Source: Cafeteria roenbergensis (lineage: Eukaryota; Sar; Bigyra; Bicosoecida; Cafeteriaceae). Taken from it: a stretch of 64,000 nucleotides of DNA. This document shows positions 3,901 to 47,328 of the stretch, piece by piece. Location: assembly GCA_008330645.1 (NCBI GenBank), contig VLTN01000018.1, positions 186,001-250,000 on the forward strand, in the 5' to 3' direction. The translations under genes were made by a program, and so were the position numbers. Numbering within the stretch: position 1 is the first letter of the stretch; each line of letters begins with the position of its first letter. The notes beneath the pieces were generated by a model. It saw only the letters and a list, made by a program, of their open reading frames with translations, was not told where the DNA came from and made no database searches.

Positions 3901-6900
3901 ACGCCGCGCCCGGGTCGGCGTCTGGTGAGGAGGGCACATTTGCCATTGCCAGGTCCAAGAGACTCGATCCCCCGCTGACGGGGCGCACAAGCGACGCTTC
4001 AAGCGTGCCGAGCTGCCATGCGGTGTGCAGCATGGCCACCGAGCCGTTCCGGACGCAGGCAGCGAGGAGCGAATCCCCGCTCGCATCTGCTGCCTCGAGC
4101 AACGTCCGGAGGACGCCGCCCGCGTCCCCGTCTCTCTCAACTCTAGGCTCTGCCACCCAGTCGATGCTCACGGCAGCCTTGGAGGTCATGAAGCAGGTGG
4201 GGCAGATGCACGACGGAGCCGGGCGCACAAGTCGGTCCGCCGAATCCAGCAGCGGGACATGGCCCTGAGCCGTAATGACTCGAAGGGAGCGCGGGTGCGC
4301 CGTCCACTCCGTAGTTCCATCGTCCTCGACAAGCTGGACTATAGCTGAGTCCTTGGCCACGTTGCCGATGGCGCACGACTCGACGACCTTCACTGTCTGG
4401 TCCGCCTGCCTGTCGTACCAGGTCACCTTGGTGCCGGCATCCTTGACGGCAAGGATCTTGCGCACTGCGTCGTCGACGGCGCAGGACCACGCGGCAACTT
4501 CGCGAGTGTGATCTCCGACCGCCACCCACGTCTCCGGCGCGGCAATCCGCAGGCCGCACATGCGGCAGTTGACCTCGGCATCCGTGTCCCGAAGCTCGAG
4601 GACCACGGACTGCTCCTCCGTGCCAAGCTCAACGGCGGACTCAACGCGCACAGAAACCGACGGATGCGCAAGCACCACGACCGGGACGAACACGGACCCG
4701 CTGTCGGTTGGGAGGCCCGTCATTGCAGGACCCAAGGTGTCCTCGACCCCGTCGACAGCAAAGGTCAGGGTGCCGTGCCCCGGCCGCAAATCCAAGCGCA
4801 TGGTGACCTTGCTGCCGGGCAGCACCGATGGCCCGCCAGCCGAGCTCCGTGCCCCGCCTCCCTTGAGCGTGCCCGTCGCGAGGGTGAGCGTCCACATTCG
4901 CGACAGCGGCTCGCCAGCCACCGCAGGCCGCATGGCAACGCCGATTCGGCTCGCGTCCGAGTCCATTCCGCCAGTCACGGAGGCCAGCTCCACCTCGTAA
5001 ACTCCTCCAGAAACGAGATTGACGTTGACAGGCACAGCTGCCTCGGCAGATTCGGCGGCCGAAACTGTACGTCCCCCCTGGGTGAGCTTGACAACCTGGG
5101 CGCAAAAGCTGGGATCGAACACGAGGGAGGGGGCGTCACCACCCTTCGCGCCTGCTGCTGGCTCGCTTGGCGGGGCTGCGCTCGCGGTCTCTGCTCCTGC
5201 CGAAGGTGCGCTACGATCGGCTCGCTGAGCCGTCTCTGCAGCGTCGCGCTCCCGCTGAAGCGCTTCGACAACGGAGCCGGCACCGCCGGCCGTGTAGCAG
5301 AGCGCCTCGCCATGCGCAAAGCTTGTAAGGGCGTCCAGTGGCACCTGAGACCCGGACAGCAAAAAGAAGCACCCTTCGCCCGCTGGGTCGACGTCGATGA
5401 CGTGAATGCCGCTTTGGTCCTCACCGCTGCCGAGGCTGAGCGATTCGACTCTGTCTCCCAGCCACCTGACCTGCACGGGGCCGTCGGGCCCATCGCCCAC
5501 CGCTTCCACCCAGCCAAACTCTGAACTCTCGGACCGGGGCGCATTCGGAGGGGTGGTGACGAACATGCCAACGGCTATGCGGGAGACGTCCCTGGTCGCC
5601 CCGCGCCGTCTGAACCGCAGAGTCAGCTCACTGAGCTCAGTCTCCTCAGGCCACGCGAATCGCCTGAAGCCTCTCAGACTCCCGCCGAGCATATCGATGT
5701 GCAGCAGCTCGAGTCCCATTGAGCCAGGGGCAACGGACACCCGGGTGGGCTCGTTCCCGTCTTCCCAGTCCACCTGAGCCTCGGCCCCCTCCTTGACCTC
5801 AACGTCTGCCTGGATGACGCCGAACTGATAGGTGCTGCTTGTGCCGGCGGCGGCCGCCGCTGCCGAGTCGCTCACAGAAGAGGTAGTCCGCGCCCTTCCC
5901 ACGGCAGTCCCGGCGACGAGCACCGTGCCTGCCTTCGGGGCAGGAAGTACCGCCCCGCGGACAGGCACCCGCTCGCCGTCGAGCAGCAGCGATCCGACAC
6001 GATCAAACCAGCCAGTGGGAACCGACGAGACATCCCAGGGCCCGGTCTTGCGGCGCTGCCCACCGCTGCCTGTCGTGAGAGTCGGCAACGGAGTCCTGGT
6101 TTCTGTCGGAATTGCGGCTCGCCCAGAGAGCTCAAGTCCGTGAAGCACGCGGAGCGCAGTGGACAGGCCTTGCGATGCGACGCGCAGAGGCATGCGCCCT
6201 TGCTTGCACCGCTTCGTGACGTCAGCTCCCAACGAAGCCACCAGCCGCGCCACGTCCAGGTCCAGCATTCCCATTTCGGCCAGCAGGTGGAACACTGACC
6301 GGCCCTGGCTGTCGCACTCGTCCACCGGGATGCCACCCTCAACAAGCGTCGCCAGCAGTTCACCGGGGGTCGCCACTGTGTCGGGAGCGTCGGGCAGGTC
6401 AGAAACGCCGCGAGGCGGCGGAGTAGGCGGGTCCGCACCGCGGGTGGCCGCGGCCCCAGCACCCGAAGCGGCTGCATGGCTTGCGCTCCAGTCGACCTGC
6501 GCGGGAAGCAAGGCTGCCCCCTCGGTGCGCGCCTGGCTCTTGGCAGCATCCGTGGCCGCACGGAGCCGAGCCGCGTCGCTCTTCGAGCACAGCGGCCAGA
6601 TCGCTGCGCCCCATGTCCGAGCCACGGTTTCTAGCTGAACGATCTGGCCCGAGTTCCTGTAAAAGGCAACTGCCGGGTAAAAGGTGTCACTCAGCTGGTA
6701 CTTGACACCCGACCGAACGACCCGAAACGAGCTTGCATTTGCCTCGGTGGCGACCGATACAGAGGCAAGTCCGCCCGCGCTGAGGTGCAGGCGGAGCGAA
6801 ACCGTCTGGCCAGGGTGGATTGTGCCGACCTTGCTCACGCTTGGCTCGCTGCCGGAGGGCCCGTAGACATCGCCGTTATACGCCCTCACGAAGAACGAGC

Positions 6901-9097
6901 GCTTCGCGATCTCCGAGTCCTTGTACGAGGCCGCTTTCGGTCGGTTCCGGACGAAGCCAAACAAGGTGGTCTCGTCCTTGAGCTTGTCCTTCACCAGGCG
7001 CGCCGTGAAGGTGAACGTGCCAGGTCCCCGCAGGCCGCGAGTCAGGGGGACGACAGCACTGCTGGCCTTGCAAGTAACGGCAGTGCTGCCTTCGCTGAGC
7101 AACAAATGGCCATCGCTAGTGTTGGCGTTGGACACGTCCCACAGCCCCCCAGCAAGCGGGGAGCTGCACATGGTAACGAGCGTGTGCGCGAGCGGCTCCC
7201 CTGGCTTGCGGAGCACCTCCAGGGTGCTCGGCGCTGCCTTTGCAAAGGCGCCGATGATGCCCGGCCTGGCTTCCGCTGTGCAGCTGCCGAGGGCGACCTG
7301 AAGCGGAGTCTCGCCGCCGCCGACAGACGATGTTACTTCCTCCGAGTGGGCTGAGGCCTCCTTGGCAATGGCGGCGGCGTCCCCCGACAAGCAGGCCAAG
7401 AGCAGGCCGCTTTCGCGCACGTTTGGGATGCCCATGGCGTCGCATAGGAGCTGCACGATGCTTGCGTGGTTGCCGTGCCTGGCCAAGTCCAGCGCAGTGA
7501 AGCCGGAAGCATTCCGCACAGTGCATGAGGCCTCTGCGCCGAGCAGCGCCACCACCACCGCTTCGTGCCCAGCTGCTGCGGCGCGGTGCAGCGGCGTCGC
7601 GCGGTCGCCCCTGATCGACCGGGCATCCACATTCACGGCAGAGCCTGCCACCTCGAGAATCGTCGAGAGCGTGAACACTTTCCCGGCAGACGCCGCTGCA
7701 TGCAGCAGCCCCTCACCAGACCGCTCGGAGGACACCACCGTTTCAGTCTCGCCCTCGATCGGGTGAGGTCTGCCCAGCAAGATGGTGTGCGAGGAGTCCA
7801 TGACGTCGAACACAACGTTCAGAATGTTGGCCTTGGTGGCCTCGTCAGACATTGCAGCATCGCAAATGAATGTCCAGCACCGACTGGCCATGACCCTCTC
7901 CAGGTCATTAAACTTGAGTTCCGCCATCTCTGCCAAGATTTCAGCGGACTCGTCCCTCTCGGGTGGGCCGGCCTTCGCTCCAGAGGACGCAGCAGCTGCA
8001 GGGGCGGCTGCATCCGACGGCGCTGCAGCCGACGACCTCGCTGCAGCGGAAGCGCCCGCCCCCGTCGCCACGCCCCCACTTGCTGTTTCGGCGGCGCCCG
8101 CCCCTGCGGCCGGAGCTCCAGCCTCGGCAGAAGCAGCCTCGCCGGCCAAAACGAACCCGCCTTCCTCCCCGCTGGCAACGGCGCTCAGCCTGTCGTGTTC
8201 GTCGGCCACAGCCTGCAAGTGGGTCGCCCAGCCAGCCGGAGTGTAGCCTCGGTGCGCCAGCAGCGGCTCCTGACCTGCGGCGTCCGGGCCACCCACTCGC
8301 AGTTGGAAAAGCTCCCGACTTGCGCCAGACGGAATCGTCGCCTCAAACGACACTGCTGGCACGAGGGCCCGTCCGGCACCCCGCCTGGCGTCGTGCCCCA
8401 CCCGTTTGAAGGCCTGCTCGAGAGAGTCCCCCGTCAAGAAGAACTCGAGCGCCTGCCCTCCGACGTCCAGGGCGCAGCCAAGCACGTCCCCTTGCCGTGC
8501 AGACCGCCCCATGCTGTAGCCGAGAGCGGAGATGGGAACGTCGGACTTGCAGAGCGTCTCGTTGCAGCCGGCGCGAGTGCAGCCGCAACGCGGCTTTGCT
8601 CCTGCTGCTGCTCCAGACGACGCGTCGGTGGCGGAGGTTGTTGAGCTCGCTGGCTCGTCGGCAGGTGCCTGGTGCAGCAGCTTCTGATGGAGCGCATCGA
8701 ACGCCCAGCTGTCGAGGCACCCGCCCAGTTGCGGCCCTGACTCCTCTAGGCACCGGGAGCCCCTCGCGGCCCAGCCCAGACGGAGCGCGTCCAGCCTTGC
8801 ATTGCAACTGGGGTTGCTTCCGGATCGCATCCTCACAAGGCGCCTCGGGCCTTCCACTGGGCACGCTGCCAGCAGGCGCACGTCAAACACGAGCGTCGCA
8901 GGTGCAGCGTCTCCGGCCTCGGGCGTGCCGGGCTCGGGGGGCTGCCCAGCGACCAGGGCCGGAAGCTGCCTGCCAAGCTCGGCGCCGTAGTCGGCAACCA
9001 CGATTCCGGACACCTTGCCGTCCTGCAGCGCCTGCACGACGCCTGTCGCTGGGTCCACTTGCGCGCCATCGCTGATAATGACCAGCCTGAGGGCCAT
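986..9097 (-). CDS. Giant SPRY/ankyrin-repeat protein kinase (TKL-like)
   Basis: A single uninterrupted frame encodes 2,703 residues from an ATG at 9097. Residues about 68-270 look like a SPRY/B30.2 fold (VFDVRLLA, LRLGWA, GDVLGCALDVGGQALEFFL, ALVPAVSFE). A second lectin/SPRY-like segment lies near 665-830 and a third beta-rich segment near 1365-1490. Isolated ankyrin repeats occur near 490-565 and 920-990, and a block of at least six near 1965-2220 (GRTPLHILCAA, RRPLHFAARCG, GFTPLHVAVTKG). The C-terminus, about 2250-2670, is a kinase with all key motifs: GEGGFGVV loop, VVVK lysine, HRDLKPDN catalytic loop, SDFGLSK and RAPE. An insert of about 35 basic and Ala/Pro-rich residues follows APE. 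The ankyrin-kinase order and motif style suggest the tyrosine-kinase-like group, a signalling serine/threonine kinase. Substrate and location cannot be read. It lies 239 bp upstream of the oxidoreductase stop, and the CCAAT motif 100 bp upstream may drive it. Confidence 0.9.
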   Translation of the reverse strand: MALRLVIISDGAQVDPATGVVQALQDGKVSGIVVADYGAELGRQLPALVAGQPPEPGTPEAGDAAPATLVFDVRLLAACPVEGPRRLVRMRSGSNPSCNARLDALRLGWAARGSRCLEESGPQLGGCLDSWAFDALHQKLLHQAPADEPASSTTSATDASSGAAAGAKPRCGCTRAGCNETLCKSDVPISALGYSMGRSARQGDVLGCALDVGGQALEFFLTGDSLEQAFKRVGHDARRGAGRALVPAVSFEATIPSGASRELFQLRVGGPDAAGQEPLLAHRGYTPAGWATHLQAVADEHDRLSAVASGEEGGFVLAGEAASAEAGAPAAGAGAAETASGGVATGAGASAAARSSAAAPSDAAAPAAAASSGAKAGPPERDESAEILAEMAELKFNDLERVMASRCWTFICDAAMSDEATKANILNVVFDVMDSSHTILLGRPHPIEGETETVVSSERSGEGLLHAAASAGKVFTLSTILEVAGSAVNVDARSIRGDRATPLHRAAAAGHEAVVVALLGAEASCTVRNASGFTALDLARHGNHASIVQLLCDAMGIPNVRESGLLLACLSGDAAAIAKEASAHSEEVTSSVGGGETPLQVALGSCTAEARPGIIGAFAKAAPSTLEVLRKPGEPLAHTLVTMCSSPLAGGLWDVSNANTSDGHLLLSEGSTAVTCKASSAVVPLTRGLRGPGTFTFTARLVKDKLKDETTLFGFVRNRPKAASYKDSEIAKRSFFVRAYNGDVYGPSGSEPSVSKVGTIHPGQTVSLRLHLSAGGLASVSVATEANASSFRVVRSGVKYQLSDTFYPAVAFYRNSGQIVQLETVARTWGAAIWPLCSKSDAARLRAATDAAKSQARTEGAALLPAQVDWSASHAAASGAGAAATRGADPPTPPPRGVSDLPDAPDTVATPGELLATLVEGGIPVDECDSQGRSVFHLLAEMGMLDLDVARLVASLGADVTKRCKQGRMPLRVASQGLSTALRVLHGLELSGRAAIPTETRTPLPTLTTGSGGQRRKTGPWDVSSVPTGWFDRVGSLLLDGERVPVRGAVLPAPKAGTVLVAGTAVGRARTTSSVSDSAAAAAAGTSSTYQFGVIQADVEVKEGAEAQVDWEDGNEPTRVSVAPGSMGLELLHIDMLGGSLRGFRRFAWPEETELSELTLRFRRRGATRDVSRIAVGMFVTTPPNAPRSESSEFGWVEAVGDGPDGPVQVRWLGDRVESLSLGSGEDQSGIHVIDVDPAGEGCFFLLSGSQVPLDALTSFAHGEALCYTAGGAGSVVEALQRERDAAETAQRADRSAPSAGAETASAAPPSEPAAGAKGGDAPSLVFDPSFCAQVVKLTQGGRTVSAAESAEAAVPVNVNLVSGGVYEVELASVTGGMDSDASRIGVAMRPAVAGEPLSRMWTLTLATGTLKGGGARSSAGGPSVLPGSKVTMRLDLRPGHGTLTFAVDGVEDTLGPAMTGLPTDSGSVFVPVVVLAHPSVSVRVESAVELGTEEQSVVLELRDTDAEVNCRMCGLRIAAPETWVAVGDHTREVAAWSCAVDDAVRKILAVKDAGTKVTWYDRQADQTVKVVESCAIGNVAKDSAIVQLVEDDGTTEWTAHPRSLRVITAQGHVPLLDSADRLVRPAPSCICPTCFMTSKAAVSIDWVAEPRVERDGDAGGVLRTLLEAADASGDSLLAACVRNGSVAMLHTAWQLGTLEASLVRPVSGGSSLLDLAMANVPSSPDADPGAAWTVEGSDGTSRDDDSEDDVLIRSFVKQISTIASRTAARRVFALGSLQGDAGGPAIPRAVVESGSCPSVLQPWLLEAGPLPQPRASHALVFLPLSRPGASATAATTETQPNSSSGQVAWVRLSTLYNPHRLARLASEGIDAADSTEVLSPELWHQLGGVDLLGVATSPAVDCVWLLFGLARRLGWRGDGPAASEASWERPPPLLSEADREVANLSAVRAASQLLQMSILSQLSERERVLALAGARIEDTADALGRTPLHILCAAPLPSPDMVGRLVDRGAKTMATDHALSTPLHCASRCSEGAVAVEVMKILLLPLVEPAGEDEAASRGGAAAASSGAGMPLVPDQRLLKRLAASPAVRAAVNTCDSSGRRPLHFAARCGCWDSTVFLLACGASLEHEDDSASPLYSAVSGGHRHIVSLLCNRGAKVDVSHKKTGFTPLHVAVTKGAQSMVALLLRAGASPEYPSTDGVTPLALARRLQAHNLVGIIHEAISTRAERSTETAPIGAAAQLAALVGPHLIEPKVVRLGRKLGEGGFGVVMEAELEHMPGTKVVVKQLKTVTALDDDHREMLLQEVKLMRMACSIHHPAVLQFIGLIAEDHGVSSNGRPLAYGLVLDFAAGGSLRSLLDSTEDPVTLPLTSRMALLTDIASGLAFLHAEQHTRQPIAHRDLKPDNILLDQSRTRAMISDFGLSKVRSVAEQATKTSKFATTMQYRAPEVWVSRKARRQRRDQRRGGQTPRAAPPTAAETALALQNDLAQDVFSFGVLMWETVTLLPPFGGDVEVMDISRCIVTERRLPGPLEARLVEEADAAAHRSLEEMGQAEAGAAEAEAECEVGGRDWTDLAWFEGESGSHPPQAGLQSTQSAGFGVNTGVSSADGADFEVALAGDAAMSDDDDQFEKEDYEAARAMPRSLAVLIARCCSYDPTQRPKSTEVVAELSRIAAAVRLQAHGVEAAPQTPAPKATTRAAYGEFD

Positions 9098-31847: not shown

Positions 31848-32786
31848 TCAGAGCTCCTCGCCCCGCGGGTCCTCGCGCTCCGTCGGTGGCTCGTGCGTAA
31901 ACGTGGAAACGAAGACGTTCCAGTCGCCCATGTTGAGCGTGGCGTGCCACCACCCGTCCGGAATGTAGATGGCGCTGCCGGCCGGAACCGTACACTCCAG
32001 CATGTCAACGGGGCTGCGCCAGCCGCTCTCGTCCAGGGTTGCGCAGGCGGCGGGGCTGGCCGAGGCCATTGGGCACTGCCTGATGAACGCCGGCAGCCAG
32101 CGGTTGTGCACCCACGCGACGGAGGATTCGTTGGGGTGAAAGTCGGGACGCCGCGCCGGGGGCGAGAGGAACCAGCGCTTGGAGCCATGCACGGTCTCGG
32201 CGAAGGCGGGGCCGTGCGTGTGGAAGCTGACTCCGCTCCCCAGCCCGCCGAGGCCAAGCGAGACGGCAGGGTCGTCGAGGGGGCCGTCTAGGGGCGGCTG
32301 GTACTGGCTCTGGAGTCTCAGCCACTCGGGCCCGCGAGTGTCCCCGAACAGGTACCAGGACTCGTTCGCGCGCGAATCCGGCCCCTGCTCCATCATAAAG
32401 GACTCGATGTAGTCGCCGAGTGTCGTGTCCATGCGCCCCGCCGAGAAGCTGTTGGAAGAGGACAGGGTAACGTCGATCGAGCCGTACTCCGCAAGCAGCG
32501 CTTGCCGCGTGGTCTCGTTTCGGAACGCCCCGTCGCCCGCCCTGAAGACCACGGGCTTGCGCCCCTTGAACAGCTCCCGAAACATTGCGACGCTCAGCAG
32601 GTCCACCTGCTCGATGTTGCAAGGGTTCTCGGTTCCCAGCCAGCCGAGCTGCGCCCAGTTGCCGCGCGGTGCGTCCGCCAGGTGGCGCCTCGCAGGCCTG
32701 CCGCCGCCCTGCGGGCGCTCCCCAGCCCCCACACTGCCTGCCGCAAGCAGTGCCGTCAGCGTGATGCCAGCAAGGGTCGCCCGCAT
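31848..32786 (-). CDS. JMJD8-like JmjC/cupin protein of the ER lumen
   Basis: This encodes 312 residues with no intron. A signal peptide (MRATLAGITLTALLAAGSVGAG) is followed by a cupin/JmjC fold: KPVVFRAGDGAF, TLSSSNSFS, TLGDYIESFMM, then SFHTHGPAFAETVHGSKRWF, FHPNESSVAW, ECTVPAGSAIYIPDGWWHAT and FVSTF. The order and spacing match JMJD8, an ER-luminal JmjC protein with no proven demethylase activity. The metal site reads H-T-H plus a distal His in WWHAT instead of the HxD/E...H of active JmjC oxygenases, and I recall the same substitution in JMJD8. Asn-linked glycosylation sequons are present. The chain ends GEEL, loosely like a KDEL-type retrieval signal. It is divergent from the SIR2 gene (152 bp) and convergent with the glycosyltransferase. 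Confidence 0.85.
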   Translation of the reverse strand: MRATLAGITLTALLAAGSVGAGERPQGGGRPARRHLADAPRGNWAQLGWLGTENPCNIEQVDLLSVAMFRELFKGRKPVVFRAGDGAFRNETTRQALLAEYGSIDVTLSSSNSFSAGRMDTTLGDYIESFMMEQGPDSRANESWYLFGDTRGPEWLRLQSQYQPPLDGPLDDPAVSLGLGGLGSGVSFHTHGPAFAETVHGSKRWFLSPPARRPDFHPNESSVAWVHNRWLPAFIRQCPMASASPAACATLDESGWRSPVDMLECTVPAGSAIYIPDGWWHATLNMGDWNVFVSTFTHEPPTEREDPRGEEL

Positions 32787-32938
32787 GGCGCCGGCACCGC
32801 TCCAGCCTCGCTGCCCGTCCGGTGGCTGCCCGAGGTTGAGTCGGCAGGCCAGGCCGCTGGCGTGTTTGGCAGCTGCAAAGATTGCCGGTGCAAAACGATT
32901 TGACTCCAGAGGCCACTGCCGGTCCTGCGGGGCTTGGC
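32787..32938. promoter_or_regulatory. Divergent promoter, JMJD8-like / SIR2
   Basis: Only 152 bp separate the two outward-facing ATGs, so the transcripts probably share a promoter. The plus-strand frame is open upstream of 32939 to 32882, but only with non-ATG codons. No TATA or CCAAT motif is obvious. Confidence 0.4.
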
Positions 32939-35900
32939 ATGGCGATCTCGGGCTGGGAAAGCGGCCACGTTTTCATTGTTCGCGGGGACGCCGCCAAAGT
33001 GGCATGCGATGCGCAGCTGGTTGACTACGTGGCCGAGGACGACGCGGGCTCGGCGCCCAAGTTCCTGCCCGGCGACATTGACATTGCCTGCATTCGGGAG
33101 CGCAGCCAGCTGGAGAGCCCCCGGTTCCTGGTCGACTTTGGCCCGTTGCAGGGCATCCCTGAGCTCATGGAGGACGTGGTGTCCGGCAACGAGAGCTTTG
33201 ACACGCTGGTCGCCAATTTTGTCGAGCAGTCGATTCGCGCCCTCGTGGCCAAGGCCTACGAGGCCCTTCGCACGGTGTGGAGCGCGTACATCATGAAGGC
33301 GGGTCCGCCGCGCTTCCGCCGGGCCCGGCCCCTGGTCGCGCTGCCCCTGCTCAAGGGGCACCTGCTGCCGAGCACGATGGGCGGCGAGTGGGTTCACACT
33401 CGCTGCTCCGTGCCGCACGCGGTCAAGGCCGCTGTGTTCGACGCTCTGAACAGCCTCTTGGCGGAGGACTCCATCACGGCCCCGCTGGCCCGGGAAATGC
33501 TGCGGGCAATGACGAAGGCCTGCAACGAAACTGGCATCGACGTGGTGCTGGCGGCAGAGTCCAAGGCGCAGTTCGTTGCGCTGCAAATGGGCCGCTGCGC
33601 CGCCCGCCTTGCGCCCGCCGGCTCGCGTGAGTCCCGGAACGGCAGGAGCGGCACCGTCTACCCCGCCTGGGAGGGGCTGTCGGACTCTGGGCGGGAAGAG
33701 GCGCGAAAGCTGGCCACGCACGCCGCGTCGGGGCACCTCACAGTCTTCGTCGGCGCCGGCGTCAGCGCGGGGGCGGGCCTGCCCACATGGACGGAGCTGC
33801 TGAAGAAGCTGGCGCGCCGCGCGCACCTCTTCACGAGCAAGCGGCCACGTCGAGCGAGCCTCGAGGGCAGGTCAGGGCGCCGCTCGGCGCAGCGCCTGAG
33901 CCATGCCGTGGCATCCCTGGAGGAGCAGCAGCAGCGCGCGGAGGCAGAGTTCGACCGGATGGACCTGATGGACCAGGCCCTGCTGGTGGAGCACGAGCTG
34001 GAGAAGCGGGGCAAGAAGTTGGGCATCGAGGTTGCCAGGATGCTGGGCTCCAAGGAGTACGCGCTGGGCCACGCTCTCGTGGCGTCGCTGGGGGCCAAGA
34101 ATGCGGTCACGACCAACTACGACACGCTGCTGGAGGACGCCATCCGCAGCACGAACGAGGCCATCTCCGTGATGCCCAACGGGCCCGACGACCCCAAGGC
34201 CGACCGCTGGCTCCTCAAGATGCACGGCTGCGTGCTGCAGCCGAGCGGAATTGTGCTCACCCGGGCCGACTACGCGCGCTTCTCCGAGGAGTCCGGCGCG
34301 CTGCGAGGCGTGGTGCAGGCCTCCCTCATGACGTCGCACATGCTCATGCTGGGTTTCGGTCTGCAGGACCCCAACTTCTACAGCCTCTACAACGACGTGG
34401 AGCGGGCGGTGAAGCGCGGCGAGGGCGTCGGGGGCCAGCCGAGGCGCCTCGGCACCGTCATCACTCTGCAGCACAACTCGATGCAGGTGCGGCTGTGGGA
34501 GAGGAGGCTTCACTTCGTCTGGATCGACAAGCTGCGCTCGGCGGCGGAATCCGGACGGAAGATTGGGGGCGCGCTGCCGCTGATGAAGCGGTCGGCGACG
34601 GGGCCGGTGGGGGGCACCTTGCGGCCGGCGAGGGCGGAGGACGAGACTGACGCGGCCCTGCTCGCGGCCTTCGAGCGAGCCAACGGCAAACGGGGGGGGG
34701 CACATGCGGAGGGCCCCTCGAAGCCGCGCCAGCCGGCGAGCCGGGCCAAGAGCGCCCGCTTCCTCGCCCCCGCAAAGCTGCGAGGGGGCTCTCTCCTTGC
34801 CGTTGGGGAGCCCGCCTCGGAGGGCGGCAGCAGCAAGACCAGCTGCGCGTCGGAGTCGACGGGCGCCTCCGATGATGAGGGTTGCCCGGACTCGGCCGGC
34901 GACCACGGCCGAGCCGTCGCGGCGGCCAGCACCGCGGCCTCGACTGCAGGCGTGTCGAGGGCACTGTTCGCTCAGGATGCGGGGCACGGTTCGGCCCTGG
35001 CCGCATCCCGGCCGGAAACGGCCGAGCGCCCGCGCGTCGCCCGGCACAGCGCCGCTGCCGCCAAGCCCCGCGCTGCAGCAGACTGCTCTGCTCCGCCTGA
35101 CCACCCCGCCCCGTCCGACGTGGCCATCCTGGCGCGGCTCCACGACGTCTTCCTCGACTTCGTCGTCTTCACCAGCTTCCACAAGGCGCCGCACCGCCAC
35201 ATGCCCGACCCGGCCCCCATCCTGGGCGCCGAGCGCATCGAGCTCAACTCCGACGACTGGCAGCTCCGCCAGGCGGTGCAGAAGTTCCTCACCGACCTGC
35301 CACAGTGCTGCCGCATGTCCCCGGCGTTCGAGCCCATCGCCGCGGCAGTGCGCAGCCTGGGCGGCCAGCAGCTGCTGCAGGACACCAAGAGGGCCGGCGC
35401 ACGCTTCTTCGTCACAGGGGTCACGGACGAGGGCGCAACTCCCATGCCGGAGCCACGCGCGCGGCGGGACCGCCCTCCGCCGCCGCCGAGGCGGAAGCGG
35501 CCTGCGCGCTCCCCACTGCACTTCAAGCGCCCGAAGGCTCCCCCACGCCGCGCGGCCATCGTGGCCAACGGCGGGATCGCCGCGCCGCCCCTGCAGGCGG
35601 CGCCTTCGGACCCGCACGACGCAACAACAGGTCCCGCGGCGTTCGCGACGAAGGCGACCCGCGAGGACACGGCCGACCCGGAAGGCGTGGCAGCGGCTGC
35701 GGCAGCAGCGCCCCCGGAAACGGCAGTGCCCTCCCCCTCTCGTGGGCAGCAGCCCCCGCCCTTGCGCAGCGAGGCGGGGACGGGCGAGCCTGCGTGGCCG
35801 GCTTCCAGTCCCGCAAGCCCGCCCTCCCCGCCGGCAGGCCGAGCCTCTGCCGTTTCCGCCGAGACGCCCGACGAAGCCTTCCACTCATCATCTGTGCTCA

Positions 35901-36784
35901 CTGGGAGCCCTGGCGGGGCCGCGTCGCCTCCGGGCCGGGCTTCGAGCAGTCAGGCATCGTCGGCAAGCCGCCTACCTGCTTCAGCCGCCCTCACCAAGAG
36001 CGCGCCTCGTCGAAGAGCCACCACCGGGCCGCGCGACACGGGAGACGACGGCAGTCACCCCGGCTCCTGGTCTCGGAGCGGCAGTCCCTCCCCCGCTGGG
36101 CGGCGAGCTGCGCCGGACGGGCTCGACGACGAGGGAAGCGGCAGTCCCTCCAGCGGCATGGCTCGCTACTCGCAGCGCTTCGTCGTGAGCGGACAGAAGG
36201 CCAGTCCGTCGTTGTCCGTGTCGGCCGCAAAGCCCGCCAGGAGGTGCCGCGGTGCCGCCCTCGCCGCCGTGCGGAGCAACACCTGCTCTGACGCCGGCTT
36301 GGACGAGCAGGCGGGGCGCTCGATGCGGACGGCTGGCTCGGACCCCGCGGGCGGATACGCTATGGGGTGGCCCCAGCCACTGCAGGCCTCTGCAAGCGCC
36401 ACCTCGGCGCCCATGGGCTTGGCGCAGTCGGCCGGCGGTGGGCACGACGGCGCGGCGGGACCCCCAATCGGACCAGAGGACTCCGGGTCCGCAGGCGCCG
36501 CAGCCTCGACCCACATGTCCGCCCAAGAGCGCGAGCGCTACCAGTCGATGTCCATCCGCCGAGCGACGGCCTGGTCCCTCCTCCGCGACATCGGTCAGGG
36601 CCGGCGGCAGATGTGGGACTCGCCGGAGCGGTCGGGCGAGCCGCTTGCCCGGGCGGGATCCAACGACGCGCCAGAGCCCGGCATGCCTGCCCGGGGCCAC
36701 CCGCACCTCATTGACCAGATCGACGAGGCGGTGGAGTCGGATGATGGCAGCTCCGGCTCCACGGCAGAGACGCAGCGGTCGTAG
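32939..36784 (+). CDS. Macro-like + SIR2-like protein with long disordered tail
   Basis: The ATG at 32939 gives 1,281 residues; upstream in-frame codons are non-ATG. Residues about 5-235 form an alpha/beta domain (GHVFIVRGDAAKVACDAQLV, RPLVALPLLKGH, GIDVVLAAESKAQFVALQMGR) that by eye resembles a macro/ADP-ribose-binding fold. Residues about 260-500 are a SIR2-like domain of the SIR2_2 type: VFVGAGVSAGAGLPTWTELL, VTTNYDTLLEDAI, LLKMHGCVLQPSGIVLTRADY and MLGFGLQDPNFYSLYNDVE. The NAD-binding GAG, the Asn of TTNYD and the His of MHG are retained, so NAD hydrolysis or deacylation is possible. SIR2_2 domains are known mainly from bacterial anti-phage NADases (Thoeris, DSR) and from some fungal and protist proteins. 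Residues about 530-720 and 840-1281 are Ser/Ala/Pro-rich and probably disordered. One ordered island at about 725-830 (VFLDFVVFTSFHKAPHRH) is unrecognised. Role unknown; the immunity link is inference. Confidence 0.8.
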   Translation: MAISGWESGHVFIVRGDAAKVACDAQLVDYVAEDDAGSAPKFLPGDIDIACIRERSQLESPRFLVDFGPLQGIPELMEDVVSGNESFDTLVANFVEQSIRALVAKAYEALRTVWSAYIMKAGPPRFRRARPLVALPLLKGHLLPSTMGGEWVHTRCSVPHAVKAAVFDALNSLLAEDSITAPLAREMLRAMTKACNETGIDVVLAAESKAQFVALQMGRCAARLAPAGSRESRNGRSGTVYPAWEGLSDSGREEARKLATHAASGHLTVFVGAGVSAGAGLPTWTELLKKLARRAHLFTSKRPRRASLEGRSGRRSAQRLSHAVASLEEQQQRAEAEFDRMDLMDQALLVEHELEKRGKKLGIEVARMLGSKEYALGHALVASLGAKNAVTTNYDTLLEDAIRSTNEAISVMPNGPDDPKADRWLLKMHGCVLQPSGIVLTRADYARFSEESGALRGVVQASLMTSHMLMLGFGLQDPNFYSLYNDVERAVKRGEGVGGQPRRLGTVITLQHNSMQVRLWERRLHFVWIDKLRSAAESGRKIGGALPLMKRSATGPVGGTLRPARAEDETDAALLAAFERANGKRGGAHAEGPSKPRQPASRAKSARFLAPAKLRGGSLLAVGEPASEGGSSKTSCASESTGASDDEGCPDSAGDHGRAVAAASTAASTAGVSRALFAQDAGHGSALAASRPETAERPRVARHSAAAAKPRAAADCSAPPDHPAPSDVAILARLHDVFLDFVVFTSFHKAPHRHMPDPAPILGAERIELNSDDWQLRQAVQKFLTDLPQCCRMSPAFEPIAAAVRSLGGQQLLQDTKRAGARFFVTGVTDEGATPMPEPRARRDRPPPPPRRKRPARSPLHFKRPKAPPRRAAIVANGGIAAPPLQAAPSDPHDATTGPAAFATKATREDTADPEGVAAAAAAAPPETAVPSPSRGQQPPPLRSEAGTGEPAWPASSPASPPSPPAGRASAVSAETPDEAFHSSSVLTGSPGGAASPPGRASSSQASSASRLPASAALTKSAPRRRATTGPRDTGDDGSHPGSWSRSGSPSPAGRRAAPDGLDDEGSGSPSSGMARYSQRFVVSGQKASPSLSVSAAKPARRCRGAALAAVRSNTCSDAGLDEQAGRSMRTAGSDPAGGYAMGWPQPLQASASATSAPMGLAQSAGGGHDGAAGPPIGPEDSGSAGAAASTHMSAQERERYQSMSIRRATAWSLLRDIGQGRRQMWDSPERSGEPLARAGSNDAPEPGMPARGHPHLIDQIDEAVESDDGSSGSTAETQRS

Positions 36785-37038: not shown

Positions 37039-40000
37039 ATGGCGGCGCCAGAGCCGCCAGGGCTGCACCCGCTCCTTCGGGCCGCACGTGACGGCGATGT
37101 AGACGCCCTGAACAGGGCAACCACCGAAGCGCTCCGCGCCGCTCGAGACAAGGTGAGAGCAAGCAGCGGCGCCCCCGCCGCGGCCTGGCACCACGGGACG
37201 ACGCTTGCCACCACACGCCCTTTGCTGGCGGTGGCGCCTCCCTTCGAGGCAGCGAGCGGGCCGCGCTCGTGCGAGCCTGGCTGCGCGAGCCTGGGGGAGG
37301 CACTGCCGCTGCCCTTGGCTGGTCCTCGCTGCTCGATGCCCGCCCCACCTCCCCGCCCCTCGAACCCCGCCCCAGCGATGGATCGGCTTGTCGTTGTCCT
37401 CGTTGGCTTTGCTCTGTCTTGCGTGTGCAGGAGTCTCGCGGGGCCATTCACCATGCAGCGCTCGGCAAGCAGCTGGCGGCCCTGGAGTGCTTGCTTGACA
37501 GGGGCTTGGACCCGAACGACAAGACATCCAAGGGCCTGTCGCCGGTGCACCTGGCGGTGCACGCCGGCAGTCTCGAGTGCATTCAGCTGCTGGCAAAGCG
37601 AGGAGCAACTGTGGCGACCCCCGACAAGGTGAGTTGGTGCGCGCGGCGCTCAGTGCGCCCAGGATTGCCAGGTCGCTCCCGCCGCCCACGCGAACGGGCT
37701 TGGGGCCGCCGCGGTGCTTGCGCCTGCCAAGCCAAGCGCCTGCTCCCTTGCTGACCTGTCGGCTTGCCTCGCGGCGCAGTCCGGTCGGTCGCCGCTGACC
37801 GTGGCGGTGATGGGAGGCAAGGTGGACCTGGCCGAGCATCTCTTTGCCGTTCACAAGCTGCTCCCCGTGGACCGCAACAGCGACGGCATGGACGCGCTTC
37901 ACTTTGCGTGCCTTGGAGGGCACATCAGCGCCTGCCGCTGGTGCGTCGAGCGAGGCTGCAGCCCTCGCCAGCAGACCGCCGCAGGGTGGGCGCCGCTGCA
38001 CTACGCGGCCGTGAGGGGGCACATGGAGGTGGTCATGTGGCTTCTGGGCGAGCAGGGAGTGCCCCACTCCCCCGCGGACGAGACAGGCGTCACGCCGCTG
38101 CACCTGGCCGCCACCGGGCCCTCGGAGGTGGTGCTCGTGACGCTGCTCAAGGCAGGCGCCGACCCGAACAGGAAGGATGCCCGGGGCCACACGCCGCTAT
38201 CCCTCGCGTCGGCCCGCCCCGCGGCCTCGCGGGGGTCCGTCGCGGGGACCGCGGCCTCGGCCACTGCCCTCATGAGGGAGGCCACGTCTCCCCCGCAGGC
38301 GCCCCCCCGCCCCACCATCTTCCTCGTCCGCCCCGGCGCCATCGCCGCGCGCTTCGAGGGCCCCATGCCTGGCCCCGCCTCTCCTCCCGTGGAGTCCCTC
38401 CAGGTGCAGCGGGCGGTGCGGGGCGTCCTCGGGCTCGGCTCATTCGTCGACGTCGACGAGGGCGCGCTCGATCCGGCCTCCACCTCGGCGGACCTCGGGT
38501 TTCTCAAGCCCGACGCGGTGGTGAGCGCGCGCGTCCGAGCCAAGAACCGGAACGGGTGGGGCGCCTGGAGCCCTCTCGCCGAGGAGACGTCCATCGCCGC
38601 GCTCAGTCTCGCCGCGGCAGCCGAGAGGGACGCCGCCCAGGCAGGCACCGGCGCCGACGGCGCCACTGCGCCCGCCGGTGCAGGCGGGGCAGCAGCTGCC
38701 GGAGCAGCTGCTGGCAACGGGGAGGGAGGCGGCGGCACGTCCCGGGAGCCTGCCGCCGCCAGCGGAGCCGCTGAGGCGGCAGGCACAGCGGGCAACGGCT
38801 CCGCCGCGGCAGAGGCGGCCCCAGTCACGCTCGACCGTGTCACCGCCATGGCGGCCCTGAGCGGCGACATTGACGCGCTCGTCGACGCCCGCAGGCGCGG
38901 GGTGGACCTGCTTCGGGCGGTGTGGGCCGGGAGCTCCGACCTCCCTGCCGCTGGCTCTGCCGGCGACGAGGCGACGGAGGCGCTGATCAAAGAGGCCGCG
39001 CTGGGGCGGACGGCTCTGCACCTGGCTGTCGGGGCCGGCAGAGCCGAGGCGGTGCAGTGGCTGGCCAGGCTTGCGCCGGAGGCCGGAGACGTGGCCGCTG
39101 GCGGGGGCAGCGCCGTTGACCTGCGCGATGCCAAGGGCGCCACCGCCTTTCTCCTCGCGGTGGTCAACGGCGACCTGGCATGTGCCCGGGTGCTTGCGGC
39201 TGCCGGCGCGTCCATCGACACGAGCGACCTCAAGGGCTTCTCGGCGCTTCATTACGCCGCCCACAAGAACCACGCCCGCGTCTTCTGCTGGCTGCTGGAG
39301 GCCGGAGCGGACCCGGACGCCAGGACCCGCTCGGGCAAGCCCGTGGAGGCCGTTGCAGCGGCCCTCCGGGCCGGCGCAGCCATGCTCTCGTCCGCGCGCG
39401 CGCCCCCGCCTGCGCCTCCGCCCGCCGTGTTCCTGGCGGCGTCCAGGCACGCCATCGCCGTGGAGCTGCCCGCCTTGCGTCTGGCCCCCGGCTGCCCGCG
39501 CCCTGTGGAGCTCGAGGTGTCCTACGGGCCCAAGTTCGCCATCCTCACCAGCGCCGCGACAGTCAGGGTGCCCTACGAGGCGCCAGCGCGCGGCGCCGAT
39601 CCGTCCTCCTCCTCCACCATGCGGCACGTCCTGTCCGGCCTCTCGCCCGACACCGTCTACAGCATCCGCACGCGCGCCCGCAGCGTTCGCGGCTGGGGCG
39701 GCTGGTCCTCCCGCTCCCTCGAGGTGACCACGAGGCCAGCCTCGGACAGGCGGGGCATCCCGGCGGGGCTGGTGCGGGGACGAGGCATGCCTGGGGACGA
39801 CGGGTCCCGCACCGAACAGTCCTCCGAGCCCGACCACGACGGCGCCTATGGCACCGGCTCAGGCACCCCGCAGGGGGCTGGAGCAGGAGCAGGAGCCGGC
39901 GGCGGCGGCGGCGGCGGCGACGCCGACTCCGTTGCGGACGGCCGGCCCTCCCCGTCGCTCGGCGCGGCCACGGGGCCTGCCACGCCGCGGAGCATGAGCG

Positions 40001-42582
40001 GCAACGCGGCCAGGTTCGGGCTCACGCCCTCGGACTCGCCCGCCGTCCACACGCCTGCCGCAGCCGGCGTCCGGCACGGAGGCGTTGCGGGGGACTCACC
40101 CCCCATCGCGACCGCAGCGGAGCTCGTCTCCCCGACCGCCGAGGACGCGGCTCCGGCCGCCGGGAGGCCGTCGCTCGCCGCCCGCGCGGAGGCCGCCGTG
40201 GCCGCGGACGCAAGGGCTTTCTGGCGGGCCGCGGCCGGCACCATCGCAGGGCGGCTCGCGCCAGCAGGCGGTGCGCAGTCGGAAGGCACTGACGGCACGC
40301 CGCCCACTGCTTCCGGCGCCGGCGCGGCCGGCCCTGCTGACGACCCGGAGGCAGCCGCCGCTGCCGGGCTTCTGCGCGCGCTGAGGGACGCCTGGCAGCC
40401 CCGAGCCCTGCTGCGAGAGGCCGGGCCGGCCGTCCGCGCTGTCCGCCGCGCAATCCTCCGCCAGGCTGCGGCCTCCCACCGAAGCGGCCCCGCCGCTGAC
40501 GACGCCGCATCCGACGCGGATGGTGGCCCCGCTGCCTCTGACGTGGACCGCGCCGCCTGGGCGAGCCTGCTCGAGGCCTGCGGGGCGTGGTCCGGCGCGC
40601 CGGGGCTTGGCTGGGCGCTGGGCCTGCGCCCCGAGGACCTGGTGGCGCCACCAGCGGGCGCCAGCGCTCCTGACAGCGACAGCGATGACGACGCTGGCTT
40701 GGTCGCGTTTGGCGCCACTGACGCCGACGTGGCCCCGCCCCAGGCCCGCCAGGTTCAAGAGGTGGACTTTGTGAGCGGCGGCGCCTCTGCTGACGGCCAG
40801 GGCCGCCGCCACAGGCGCCGCAAGGCCCGGCTCCAGCGAGCCGCCGCGGTGCTTGCCGAGGCCGCTGGGGCAGCGGGGTCGCCTGACAAGGCATGGGTGG
40901 CCGCTGCGGCTGTGCTCTCCTCGGGTGCCACGCTCGGGAAGCGGGCGGGCGGCAAGGCCCGACGCGGCGGCGCCTCGGCGGCGGCGATGCGGGAGGGGCT
41001 GGCCGTCGACGGGGCGGGGCCGCCGCCGGAGGCTTGTGCGGTCGCGACTGCCCTAGCCTGCTGCGTCGCCGCTGGGGCCGACCCGGGACGATTCTCCGCC
41101 TCCCTCGTCGCAGCCGTGGCGGCGGCGAGCTCCGACGCCGGCTCCGACGCCCCGAAGCCGCCGACCGCCGGTCGCGCCTCCTCGCCGCCCCCCACTGCGG
41201 CCGCGGCTGGCGTCGAGGACGAGCTCGCTGCAGCGGCAGAGCAACGCTCTCTGGCGCGCTTCCTGTCGCTTCGACCCGGCGCCGCCGGTGCGCCCTGGTT
41301 GCCTCACAGCGCCGCGTTCGCAGGCAACCTGTCCGCGCTGGTGCTGCTCGACTCCGTGGCCGCGGCGTGCGGGGCCACGCCGCGACTGCTGGGCTCGGCC
41401 GACGGCTCGTCTGACGACGCGGCCTCCGACGCGGACGATGCTGGCGGGTCGGGCGCTGGCAGCGCCTCCAGGCCGGCCTCATGGGCCGCCGCCTCCGCAG
41501 ACTCCCGCGGCGCTGTGGCCCTCCACTACGCGGCCCTGGGCGGAAGCGCCGCGGCCGTGGCCTGCCTATGCAGGCTCGATTCCTACGCCGTCCCGGAGGA
41601 CGACCTTGGCCGGTCGCCGCTTCACTGGGCGGCAGCGGCGGGGCAGGCCGAGGCTCTGGCTGCGCTCTGCACGCAGACCTCCGTGGCCGCGTCTGCCAAG
41701 GGCTGCGCGACCCTCGACTGGTCGGCCGCCGCGGCGGCGGCCACGCGCCCCGACGACCACGGCTGCTCCCCCCTCCACATCGCCGCTGCCTCTGGCGCGC
41801 CCGCCTGCATCGTCCTCCTCCTGTCCGTCGTCGCGGCGGGGGCCAAGGACGCGGCCGCCGCGGCAGCCGCTGTCGCCGCCGCGCTCGCAGCCCAGGACGC
41901 GGCCGACCGCACCCCCCTCTCCATCGCAGCGGCCACCGGCGCCGCGCCGGTCCTGGCGACGCTCCGCGCCTGGCTGCAGCCGCCCCAGCCCCCCACCCGG
42001 CCCAAGGCGGCCCCTGCCGCGGGGGTGTCCTCGGTGGCAGCAATGCGGCTGGCCTTCCGCAGCGGGGGCCAGGATGCCGAAACGGACGCCGGCCCAGCGC
42101 GCCTCGAGTGCTTCCAGCTGCTCGCGGAGGGCACATCGGAAGCGGTCGGCGCCGCGGCGGAGGCGGCGGTCTCTGCCTCCGCCGCCATCACGGCGGGATC
42201 CCACCTCCTCCCCGTGCTTGCAATGCTGCCGTGCGAGCACGCGGTGGCGGAGGTGGACTGGCTCGACACCCACCCGGCAGCCAGCCGCCCCTCGCTCCGC
42301 CCGGGGGCAAGCACCGCCCGCCTCGCTCTCCCTGCGATCGACGGCTCTGCCGACGCCCCCCGCACGCGCGCTGGGGACGTTGAGCTGTGGCTGGAGCGTC
42401 CCGACGGCGCCTCTGGGGCGGCCGGCCCGTCGCGCCTCGCCCTCTGCGTGGAGGCCTTGGAGCCCACCGACGACGGTGCCACGCCTCGCAAGCCCGCAAA
42501 GCTGCGCGTGAGGTTGCGACTGGGGAGCTCCACTGTGGGCGAGGGCGCCTGGTCAGCCTGGTCTGAGGCCATCGTGCGCTGA
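37039..42582 (+). CDS. Large ankyrin-repeat / fibronectin-III-like protein
   Basis: Three exons, 37039..37152, 37431..37628 and 37780..42582, encode 1,704 residues. Introns are 278 and 151 nt, both phase 0, GTGAG...GCAG. Exon edges coincide with ankyrin repeats: exon 1 is LHPLLRAARDGDVDALNRA, exon 2 is GAIHHAALGKQLAALECLL and SPVHLAVHAGSLECIQLLA. Ankyrins fill about 1-265, return at 460-630 (GRTALHLAVGAG, GFSALHYAAHKNHARVFCWL) and again at 1270-1505 (AVALHYAALGG, RSPLHWAAAAGQAEALAAL). FN3-like beta domains lie near 280-380 (VSARVRAKNRNGWGAWSPL), 645-757 (SIRTRARSVRGWGGWSSRSL) and at the very end (RLGSSTVGEGAWSAWSEAIV). Residues about 760-1270 are Ala/Gly-rich filler. No signal peptide or membrane helix is seen, so it is probably a cytosolic scaffold. 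No specific ortholog is recognised. Confidence 0.88.
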
Positions 42583-46119: not shown

Positions 46120-47328
46120 TCACTCATCTGCGGCCGCCGCGGCTGCTGCCGCCGCCCGCTCCGCACGGCGCTTCCCCAGACCAATTCCAAACGCGCAGCC
46201 CACCGCCCCCACGGCGGCGAGCGTGAAGACGCGGCCGATGAGCGAGCCGGCGCCAGCCGCCCGGCTGCGCCCTGCGCGCATGAGCCGCTGCGCATCCGAG
46301 GTGCCCTCCAGCACCCCCGTGGTAGCCGCGGTGAGCCAGCGAGGGGCGGTGTTCATGGCAGCTGCCGTGGGCTGCATGTGGTGCGCTTCCGGCAGGAGCA
46401 TTCCGAGCGTGGCGGTGGGCTTCGCCGCCGCTGCCGGGTCTGTCGCGAGCTTCGCCGCCCGGGGCTGCGCGAGCAGGATGTTGGTGAGGCGCTGCGGCGC
46501 CCCTAGACCGGTGTCGACCACGGACGGGATGTAGAGCGTGACGGGGCCAGAGGAAGAAGGCACCCCGGTGGCGATGCCGATTCCCGCCCCCTCCGTCTGG
46601 TCGGACTCCAGGCCTGGAGGGCGGATCACGCCCGCCAGCGCGGCGGCACGGGCCACGGCCGGCCAGCCCTCCCACACCTGGTCCTTGAATTCCGCGGCGG
46701 TGTACCGGTCCGGGCCGACCCACTTGGCCGCCGAGAGCTCGTCGGTGTCGATCTTGGGCTTGAGCGCAGCGTCCGAGTAGTCACAGGGGCGCATGAGGAA
46801 GAAGAACTGCAGGCCGGTGCTCCAGTACGGTACGTCGCCGCGCGGGGACTCGCGAAGCATCAGCAGCGACGTCACCTCGGCGGCAATTCCGGTCTCCTCA
46901 AACACCTCCCGCGAGGCGCACTCGGCCGCGGTCTCTCCGGGGTCCACAAAGCCCGCGGGGAGGGTCCACTTGGCGGGCTCCTTCGCGTACGACTGCTTGA
47001 CAAACAAGACGCGGTTCTGGGCGTCGACCACGACTCCGGCCGCGGAAGTTGCGGTAAATGGCCCAGTGAACATCTTGTCCGGCCCCTCCTGGGTCCACAG
47101 CCGCATCACCACCTCCGTGCCCTTGACGCTGAACACGCGGAAGCCGAGCTGCAGGGCCTTGGGGATGAGAGCCGCCTGGGAGGCTGGCCCGCTCAGGAAC
47201 AGGAGGGCGCCCCTGTCGGCCTTTTCGGCGGCGCCGGCGAGAGCGTCCGCCGCACTGCTCAGGTCGGCGCCCCGCTCCACATGAATGTCCAGATCCCCAA
47301 ACTGGTTCTTTTCGACGGTCAATGGCAT
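46120..47328 (-). CDS. Nudix hydrolase (NUDT6-type) with C-terminal membrane anchor
   Basis: This encodes 402 residues from the ATG at 47328. The Nudix box reads GFVDPGETAAECASREVFEETGI, matching GX5EX7REUXEEXGU in full (positions 46883-46951), so hydrolysis of a nucleoside diphosphate linked to another moiety is expected. The N-terminal part (VFSVKGTEVVMRLWT, then GPFTATSAAGVVVD) resembles the pre-Nudix region of NUDT6 and plant NUDT2/7/8, which act on NADH, ADP-ribose or CoA derivatives. After residue 250 comes an extension without family match, and near the end one hydrophobic helix (RVFTLAAVGAVGCAFGIGLG) flanked by basic residues, then a short Ala tail. That layout suggests a tail-anchored protein of a mitochondrial, peroxisomal or ER membrane. 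The anchor is inferred. Confidence 0.88.
   Translation of the reverse strand: MPLTVEKNQFGDLDIHVERGADLSSAADALAGAAEKADRGALLFLSGPASQAALIPKALQLGFRVFSVKGTEVVMRLWTQEGPDKMFTGPFTATSAAGVVVDAQNRVLFVKQSYAKEPAKWTLPAGFVDPGETAAECASREVFEETGIAAEVTSLLMLRESPRGDVPYWSTGLQFFFLMRPCDYSDAALKPKIDTDELSAAKWVGPDRYTAAEFKDQVWEGWPAVARAAALAGVIRPPGLESDQTEGAGIGIATGVPSSSGPVTLYIPSVVDTGLGAPQRLTNILLAQPRAAKLATDPAAAAKPTATLGMLLPEAHHMQPTAAAMNTAPRWLTAATTGVLEGTSDAQRLMRAGRSRAAGAGSLIGRVFTLAAVGAVGCAFGIGLGKRRAERAAAAAAAAADE

What the first reader, a model, noticed from the sequence alone, without database searches (positions are those of the whole stretch)
32939..36784. Eukaryotic macro-like + SIR2_2 protein, possible NAD-linked immunity or signalling factor
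Sequence shows an N-terminal IVRGDAAKVACDA-type domain, then a complete SIR2-like core (GAGVSAGAG, TTNYD, MHGC) and a very long disordered tail. From established knowledge, SIR2_2 domains act as NADases in bacterial defence systems, and macro domains bind ADP-ribose products. Pairing an NAD consumer with a possible ADP-ribose reader in one chain suggests NAD-based signalling. This is the best candidate in the window for an undescribed system. The macro assignment is by eye only.
Basis: partly seen in the sequence, partly recalled or inferred. Interest (0 to 1): 0.7.

Follow-up and report, generated by a model that had tools for sequence, protein, structure and literature searches.

The report
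Protist relative of bacterial macro-SIR2 proteins
A marine protist's chromosome carries one gene related to a bacterial family that joins a macro-type domain to an NAD-cutting SIR2 domain; the cutting site is intact, the presumed sensing pocket has changed, and a role in immunity is plausible but untested.

Summary
The reading frame is real: 1281 aa, window 32939-36784. Its SIR2_2 core is certain (89.7 bits, cut-off 24.5) and keeps both residues that ThsA needs to cleave NAD (N393, H429). The macro guess is probably right but cannot be shown from this protein alone. Bacterial relatives with the same N-terminus plus SIR2 (20 loci) give a profile whose PDB hits are mostly macrodomains (8 of 10, best E 0.002), and a model of one resembles macro proteins. 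The window's N-terminus matches that profile at 53.2 bits; the best of 5000 shuffles reached 12.4. So this is a protist member of a bacterial macro-SIR2_2 family. The genome matches Cafeteria strain BVI in size, and neighbours include ordinary nuclear genes. Three corrections: five pocket-loop residues kept in 18-19 of 19 bacterial rows are all changed here, so an ADP-ribose reader is not supported; the 'tail' holds a conserved bacterial C-terminal element (726-812) between two low-complexity stretches; and the bacterial relatives show no constant partner or defence context in the partial lists I saw. Most likely a single-chain NAD-cleaving effector with a remodelled N-terminal regulator.

The parts
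32939..36784 (+). whole reading frame, 1281 aa, stop included
   Evidence: ATG start, TAG stop; 0 of 1000 shuffles as long
32960..33604 (+). residues 8-222, macro-like N-terminal domain with altered pocket loops
   Evidence: residues 1-250 score 53.2 bits against the bacterial N-terminal profile, best of 5000 shuffles 12.4; 8 of that profile's 10 PDB hits are macrodomains; loop changes
33695..34558 (+). residues 253-540, SIR2_2 core; N393 at 34115-34117 and H429 at 34223-34225 match ThsA N112 and H152
   Evidence: Pfam PF13289 E 2.3e-25 over 389-493; PDB matches to ThsA, KomC, DSR2; residues
34559..35113 (+). residues 541-725, low-complexity insert absent from the bacterial relatives
   Evidence: composition; profile search places the next block after it
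35114..35374 (+). residues 726-812, C-terminal element shared with the bacterial relatives
   Evidence: 19.3 bits against the C-terminal sub-profile, best of 5000 shuffles 6.3
35375..36781 (+). residues 813-1281, low-complexity, presumably disordered tail
   Evidence: composition; GC3 dip near residues 900-1100

Best explanation
The gene encodes a single-chain NAD-processing effector of the SIR2_2 class, a member of a bacterial macro-SIR2_2 family that reached an ancestor of this protist, most likely by gene transfer. Shown by sequence: three conserved blocks (macro-like, SIR2_2, C-terminal element) in bacterial order, with an intact SIR2 NAD site. Inferred: the SIR2_2 core cleaves NAD when switched on; the macro-like domain is the regulatory or assembly module next to it; in this protein that module no longer has the family's ADP-ribose-type loops, so it answers to something else or acts only structurally; the two low-complexity stretches are later additions.
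For: PF13289 at 89.7 bits. PDB sequence matches to ThsA (E 5.9e-12 to 8.1e-9) and to KomC and DSR2, and Foldseek matches to the same group. N393 and H429 align with ThsA N112 and H152 (counted by hand along the printed 6lhx alignment); mutating either abolished NAD cleavage in ThsA (PMC7272460, passages). Both are the same in 19 of 19 bacterial rows, as are GAG 272-274, Y394, D395, D477 and F480. 17 of 20 bacterial loci match the query from residue 8-9 to 521 or beyond. The window falls inside the family clade at 100/98 and 100/99. C-terminal element, 19.3 bits against 6.3. Macro/SIR2 identity ratio is 0.64 for the window against 0.82 for bacterial pairs; 4 of 171 bacterial pairs are as low.
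Against: No activity data. I found no tested function for the closest bacterial relatives. ThsA's SLOG sensor is missing and no adjacent TIR gene was seen. No conserved operon or defence-island context in what was shown. The N-terminal part of the window model is poor (pLDDT under 50 at 29-74 and 140-156). The macro evidence is indirect: Pfam's Macro model does not fire and a direct profile comparison was weak. The tree does not resolve the donor, and only one eukaryotic genome was available, so the direction of transfer is an inference.
Confidence: 0.6

Rival explanations
1. It is a macromolecule ADP-ribosyltransferase with its own, now diverged, macro eraser in cis, like the two-gene sirtuin/Macro systems (SirTM) but fused.
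For: Sirtuin coupled with Macro is a known ADP-ribosylation pair (PMC9503650, passages; PMC12700824, passages). Macro-like fold by profile and model of relatives.
Against: The core is SIR2_2, closest to NADases. Only one cysteine in residues 253-540, so no four-cysteine zinc module. The loops a macro eraser would need are changed in the window protein.
Confidence: 0.15
2. It does cleave or bind NAD but serves ordinary NAD housekeeping or development, not defence.
For: Bacterial relatives show no constant defence neighbours in the families listed (25 of 44 and 25 of 102 families shown), and no relative was confirmed in three viral-contig scans.
Against: Nearest characterised relatives are anti-phage NADases, and human FAM118 is linked to innate immune signalling (PMC12700824, passages).
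Confidence: 0.3
3. It is a decaying transferred gene, kept open by chance and padded with low-complexity sequence.
For: Changed macro loops, long end branch (2.58 and 2.41 changes per column), low-complexity insert and tail.
Against: All SIR2 site residues checked are kept; the third block is recognisable beyond the insert; coding-type GC3 through the three blocks.
Confidence: 0.1
4. Bacterial contamination in the assembly.
For: All relatives found are bacterial.
Against: Internal to a 559,908-base contig with eIF2D, ESF1, mitochondrial carrier, ankyrin and kinase genes in the same window; about 40% identical at best to any bacterial row.
Confidence: 0.02

Closest known systems
   Same: Same three blocks in the same order; same SIR2 motifs; GH.F....D......D start in the 20 aligned rows
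   Different: The 19 aligned ones are 512-547 aa, without the 185-aa insert and 469-aa tail; loops LP and GTG.GG kept in nearly all
ThsA (SIR2-SLOG) of Thoeris
   Same: SIR2_2 core; N112/H152 equivalents; best PADLOC match (E 1.1e-27)
   Different: ThsA has a C-terminal SLOG sensor and a TIR partner; here the added domain is N-terminal and macro-like
TM-macro ThsA of Thoeris
   Same: Macro domain as sensor of an NAD-derived signal
   Different: Its effector part is a membrane segment, not SIR2 (PMC11204291, passages)
SirTM plus Macro pairs
   Same: Sirtuin and macro domain work together
   Different: Two genes, different sirtuin subfamily, protein ADP-ribosylation (PMC9503650, PMC12700824, passages)
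FAM118A/B of vertebrates
   Same: Eukaryotic SIR2_2 NAD-processing proteins
   Different: Vertebrate-specific clade (PMC12700824, passages); sequence match here only E 1.3 and 1.8
KomC and DSR2
   Same: SIR2-type fold among the top Foldseek matches
   Different: No macro domain that I know of (recalled); other partners or other added regions

Membership tests
SIR2_2 (PF13289) | Profile score over the curated cut-off | tested here: met
   89.7 bits against 24.5
SIR2_2 NADases | Asn and His needed for NAD cleavage (ThsA N112, H152) | tested here: met
   N393 and H429, same in 19 of 19 bacterial rows
SIR2_2 NADases | Measured NAD hydrolysis | not testable with these tools
   needs purified protein
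Bacterial macro-SIR2_2 family | N-terminal block homologous to the bacterial one | tested here: met
   53.2 bits, best of 5000 shuffles 12.4
Bacterial macro-SIR2_2 family | C-terminal block after SIR2 | tested here: met
   19.3 bits, best of 5000 shuffles 6.3
Bacterial macro-SIR2_2 family | Pocket-loop residues W26, P29, G139, T145, G146 (a feature found here, not a published definition) | tested here: not met
   0 of 5 kept in the window; 18, 19, 18, 18 and 19 of 19 in the bacterial rows. G140 of the window might stand for G139 if the loop is aligned otherwise
Macro domain (PF01661) | Profile score over the curated cut-off | tested here: not met
   no hit for the window (E up to 10), for 4 relatives, or for 6 more and L057; the distant L056 at E 0.12, under the cut-off
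Macro fold | Profile or structure similarity to macrodomains, tested on relatives only | tested here: met
   8 of 10 PDB hits of the relatives' profile, none under E 0.001; model of relative L007: 8 of the 50 listed viral matches are named macro, Appr-1-p, Poa1p-like or ADP-ribose hydrolase, with Foldseek probability 0.80-1.00 for six of them and 0.16 and 0.47 for two. Against: hhalign with five macrodomains weak
ADP-ribose-binding macro domain | Ligand binding | not testable with these tools
   loops altered; needs a binding assay
Thoeris ThsA | C-terminal SLOG domain | tested here: not met
   best stretch of the ThsA profile is 89-208 of 478; no SLOG family in the Pfam scan
Thoeris | Adjacent TIR protein ThsB | tested here: inconclusive
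   11 window frames scanned, no TIR; one TIR_2 gene over the cut-off lies on another contig; not all window frames were scanned
FAM118 | Sequence in the vertebrate FAM118 clade | tested here: not met
   E 1.3 and 1.8 to FAM118B chains; no tree with FAM118 was made
SirTM/Macro pair | SirTM-type sirtuin beside a separate macro gene | not tested
   no SirTM profile was run; here the domains are in one chain

The most novel reading that the evidence does not exclude
A partnerless, single-chain bacterial macro-SIR2_2 effector was taken into a giant-virus host and turned into an intracellular immune NADase whose macro sensor was rebuilt to detect something other than ADP-ribose, with the disordered insert and tail serving as new control or clustering arms.
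Probability: 0.18. Interest if true: 0.8.

Novelty: new variant of a known kind. Interest (0 to 1): 0.48.

Why it matters
[quoted passage not shown] It also points to a bacterial family that may hold sensor and effector in one chain, which makes the question of what switches a SIR2_2 enzyme on testable without a partner protein.

Tried and rejected
Pfam, PADLOC and NCBIfam on the window protein did not name the N-terminus. tblastn of the N-terminus alone against plasmids gave nothing. Phages (8 records) and the 30 plasmid records listed of 117 matched only from residue 281 on, the SIR2 part. Three scans of viral contigs gave no confirmed relative (18, 21 and 3 pattern matches). A direct hhalign of the N-terminal profile with ordinary macrodomains was weak (local: probability 3.8%, P 0.011, 50 columns near the end; global: 0.2%, P 0.21). 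My motif pattern found a macro sequence in only 5 of the 14 loci given to that script, so the profile was thin; still, it counts against the macro reading. Foldseek against the PDB listed only SIR2 hits in its first 50, so it neither supports nor denies the macro part.

A possible kinase-SIR2 operon was considered and dropped: a kinase frame lies directly upstream in L012 and L018, but only 5 of 111 neighbours scanned are kinases, in bacteria rich in kinases (recalled). The 25 families shown of 44 (PADLOC) and of 102 (Pfam) hold no TIR; the rest were not shown. The neighbours were 113 frames chosen by length and codon-position G+C; 111 were scanned, two left out because they run into the gene itself; none of L002's passed the filter.

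Rows dropped: L020 from the alignments (no N-terminal motif found). L050 has H where the 20 aligned rows have D24, and L042 reads GTR for GTG, so the loop motif is not universal. L041 and L051 were left out of the trees; of the more distant loci only L053-L057 served as outgroup; L002 and L054 were left out of the second tree (long branches). The two trees place the window next to different rows (65/75 with L002; 63/53 with L045), so no donor is claimed. The window's macro region could not be modelled well. Papers seen as passages: PMC6972860, PMC9503650, PMC12700824, PMC11204291, PMC7272460; others only in search listings. Searches for print on this protein or family. Not found there does not mean not in print; most subscription papers are not held.
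Full report
What is there. The frame at window 32939-36784 is open from its first in-frame ATG to a TAG and encodes 1281 aa; none of 1000 base shuffles of the stretch reached that length. It is the only place in the 36.3-Mb genome that matched SIR2_2, and the only match to its own first 530 residues at E 0.01. Six-frame searches there are lower bounds and ignore introns. Canonical SIR2 (PF02146) has nine matching stretches elsewhere in the genome and Macro (PF01661) two neighbouring stretches on one other contig.

Whose genome. The assembly has 36,303,456 bases in 167 contigs; window G+C in 2-kb steps is 65-78%. The published Cafeteria roenbergensis strain BVI assembly has 170 contigs, 36,327,047 bases and 70.1% G+C (PMC6972860, Table 3 passage). 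I take it to be that strain; the name C. burkhardae is used in the titles of later papers (listing). This is an inference from size. The gene lies inside a 559,908-base contig. Of ten other frames of the window given to Pfam, nine matched families: eIF2D, ESF1, mitochondrial carrier, PEPCK, aldehyde dehydrogenase, NUDIX, Cupin_8, glycosyltransferase and ankyrin repeats; an eleventh is an ankyrin-kinase protein. Contamination is not credible.

The SIR2 core. Pfam PF13289 matches residues 389-493 at E 2.3e-25. PADLOC's best ThsA model matches at 1.1e-27, and the solved structures hit below E 0.001 are ThsA, DSR2 and KomC chains (some are listed there under other names, such as USG protein or NAD-dependent protein deacetylase, and are named). 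The window model has mean pLDDT 70.9, with most of its SIR2 part at 80 or above, and Foldseek finds KomC, ThsA and DSR2. Counting along the ThsA chain puts window N393 and H429 on ThsA N112 and H152; mutants of these lost NAD cleavage, with the paper's caveat that H152A also disturbs assembly (PMC7272460, passages). Both are the same in 19 of 19 bacterial rows.

Bacterial family. A scan of bacterial and archaeal genomes gave 38 pattern matches, 20 of them relatives; in 17 of 20 the match starts at query residue 8 or 9 and runs to 521 or beyond. Titles name Gemmataceae and other Planctomycetota, Myxococcales or Myxococcota, a deltaproteobacterium, two actinobacterial groups and unnamed bacteria. 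In 294 genomes of the phylum of the Gemmata genome 13 matched at E 1e-10, three of them over most of the model. In 282 of the phylum of a Myxococcales genome 25 matched at 1e-20, 13 over nearly the whole model and one more over positions 105-513. Some of these are loci already in hand. The other matches cover the SIR2 part, three of them (L027, L056, L057) with the end of the macro part. At most five candidates per genome were scored, so these are lower bounds.

The N-terminus. The window's first 250 residues score 53.2 bits against a profile of 24 bacterial N-termini; the best of 5000 shuffles scores 12.4. That profile finds 10 PDB sequences up to E 10, and 8 of them are macrodomains: macroH2A twice (best 0.002, over positions 5-159), three O-acetyl-ADP-ribose deacetylase entries, 1spv and two nsP3 entries (that 1spv and nsP3 are macrodomains is recalled). 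None passes 0.001 alone. The model of a bacterial relative (L007, mean pLDDT 86, pTM 0.90) matches, in the viral library, three phage macro proteins of 172-201 residues over 172-179 columns (E 0.0017-0.013, target TM 0.47-0.54); only one of 342 matches, an unnamed one, is under E 0.001. The output does not give the aligned part of the model; that it is the N-terminus follows from the target names. A direct comparison with five ordinary macrodomains was weak, and Pfam's Macro model does not reach its cut-off. Taken together I judge the macro fold at about 90% for the bacterial family, and by homology for the window protein.

What changed in the protist. In the 20 aligned rows G9, H10, F12, D17, D24, R128, P136, G148, G149, D201 and R219 are shared by all. 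W26 and P29 in the first loop (plus a two-residue insertion) and G139, T145 and G146 in the glycine loop (plus a five-residue insertion) are replaced in the window and kept in 18 or 19 of 19 bacterial rows. The loop alignment is uncertain by a residue or so: window G140 might stand for G139. By comparison with macrodomains (recalled) these loops contact ADP-ribose. The macro part is also less conserved relative to SIR2 (ratio 0.64; bacterial pairs 0.82, with 4 of 171 as low). So the effector site is kept and the presumed sensor site is not.

The C-terminus. The bacterial proteins end with a helical block. The window has it at 726-812: 9.3 bits in the whole-profile search, 19.3 bits with the block's own profile in residues 546-1281, best of 5000 shuffles 6.3, and 23.6 against 8.4 when only residues 691-850 were used and shuffled. 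It is separated from SIR2 by 185 low-complexity residues and followed by 469 more. Automatic alignments misplace it; the profile search does not.

Origin. The window lies inside the family clade (100/98, 35 rows; 100/99, 33 rows) but on a long branch with unresolved place. All relatives found are bacterial, yet no other eukaryotic genome could be searched. Transfer from bacteria is the simplest reading, not a proven one.

Context and mechanism. Clustering of neighbour frames around the 20 loci found one family shared by five loci, protein kinases, and otherwise pairs only. Pfam's commonest family among 111 neighbours is protein kinase, 5 of 111, and the 25 of 44 PADLOC families shown are matched by five members each and are kinase-related as far as I can tell (names partly recalled). 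The protein therefore probably needs no fixed partner. The best account is an NAD-cleaving effector regulated in cis. Steps shown: domain identity, conserved NAD site, altered loops, added low-complexity stretches. Steps inferred: cleavage, regulation, immunity.

Known or new. SIR2_2 proteins with a Macro domain are noted in a figure legend of PMC12700824, without function in the passages seen. A search for 'macro-SIR2' and four similar terms found one paper, which uses 'Macro-sirtuin' for coupled systems. I rate it a new variant of a known kind.

Noticed in passing
window 989-9097 (-): Open frame of 2703 aa with SPRY, ankyrin repeats and a tyrosine-kinase-like domain.
   Followed up: no
window 37810-42582 (+): Ankyrin and fibronectin type III protein of 1590 aa downstream of the finding.
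   Followed up: no
window 32787-32938: Short 152-base gap between the finding and a divergent Cupin_8 gene (31848-32786, minus strand); a shared promoter region is possible.
   Followed up: no
window 46123-47328 (-): NUDIX-domain gene about 10 kb from the SIR2 gene; NUDIX enzymes can process ADP-ribose (general knowledge).
   Followed up: no
L074 (G000 contig C1, 630388-630708): The same genome has a TIR_2 gene (E 5.7e-20) in a 1568-residue open frame, with a possible SAM-like stretch after the TIR (by eye); a second candidate NAD-cleaving protein.
   Followed up: partly
L051: A bacterial relative whose TTNYD and KMHG motifs are lost (no SIR2_2 hit): an inactive-looking SIR2 with the macro-like start kept.
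   Followed up: no
L056, L057: Larger bacterial proteins with a more typical macro start (GDLT.LQVDAIVYPT) followed by SIR2_2, outside the family clade: a second macro-SIR2_2 architecture.
   Followed up: partly
window 36530-36640, about residues 1198-1234 of the protein: A less simple stretch (RERYQSMSIRRATAWSLLRDIGQGRRQMWDSPERS) inside the low-complexity tail, perhaps a short binding helix.
   Followed up: no
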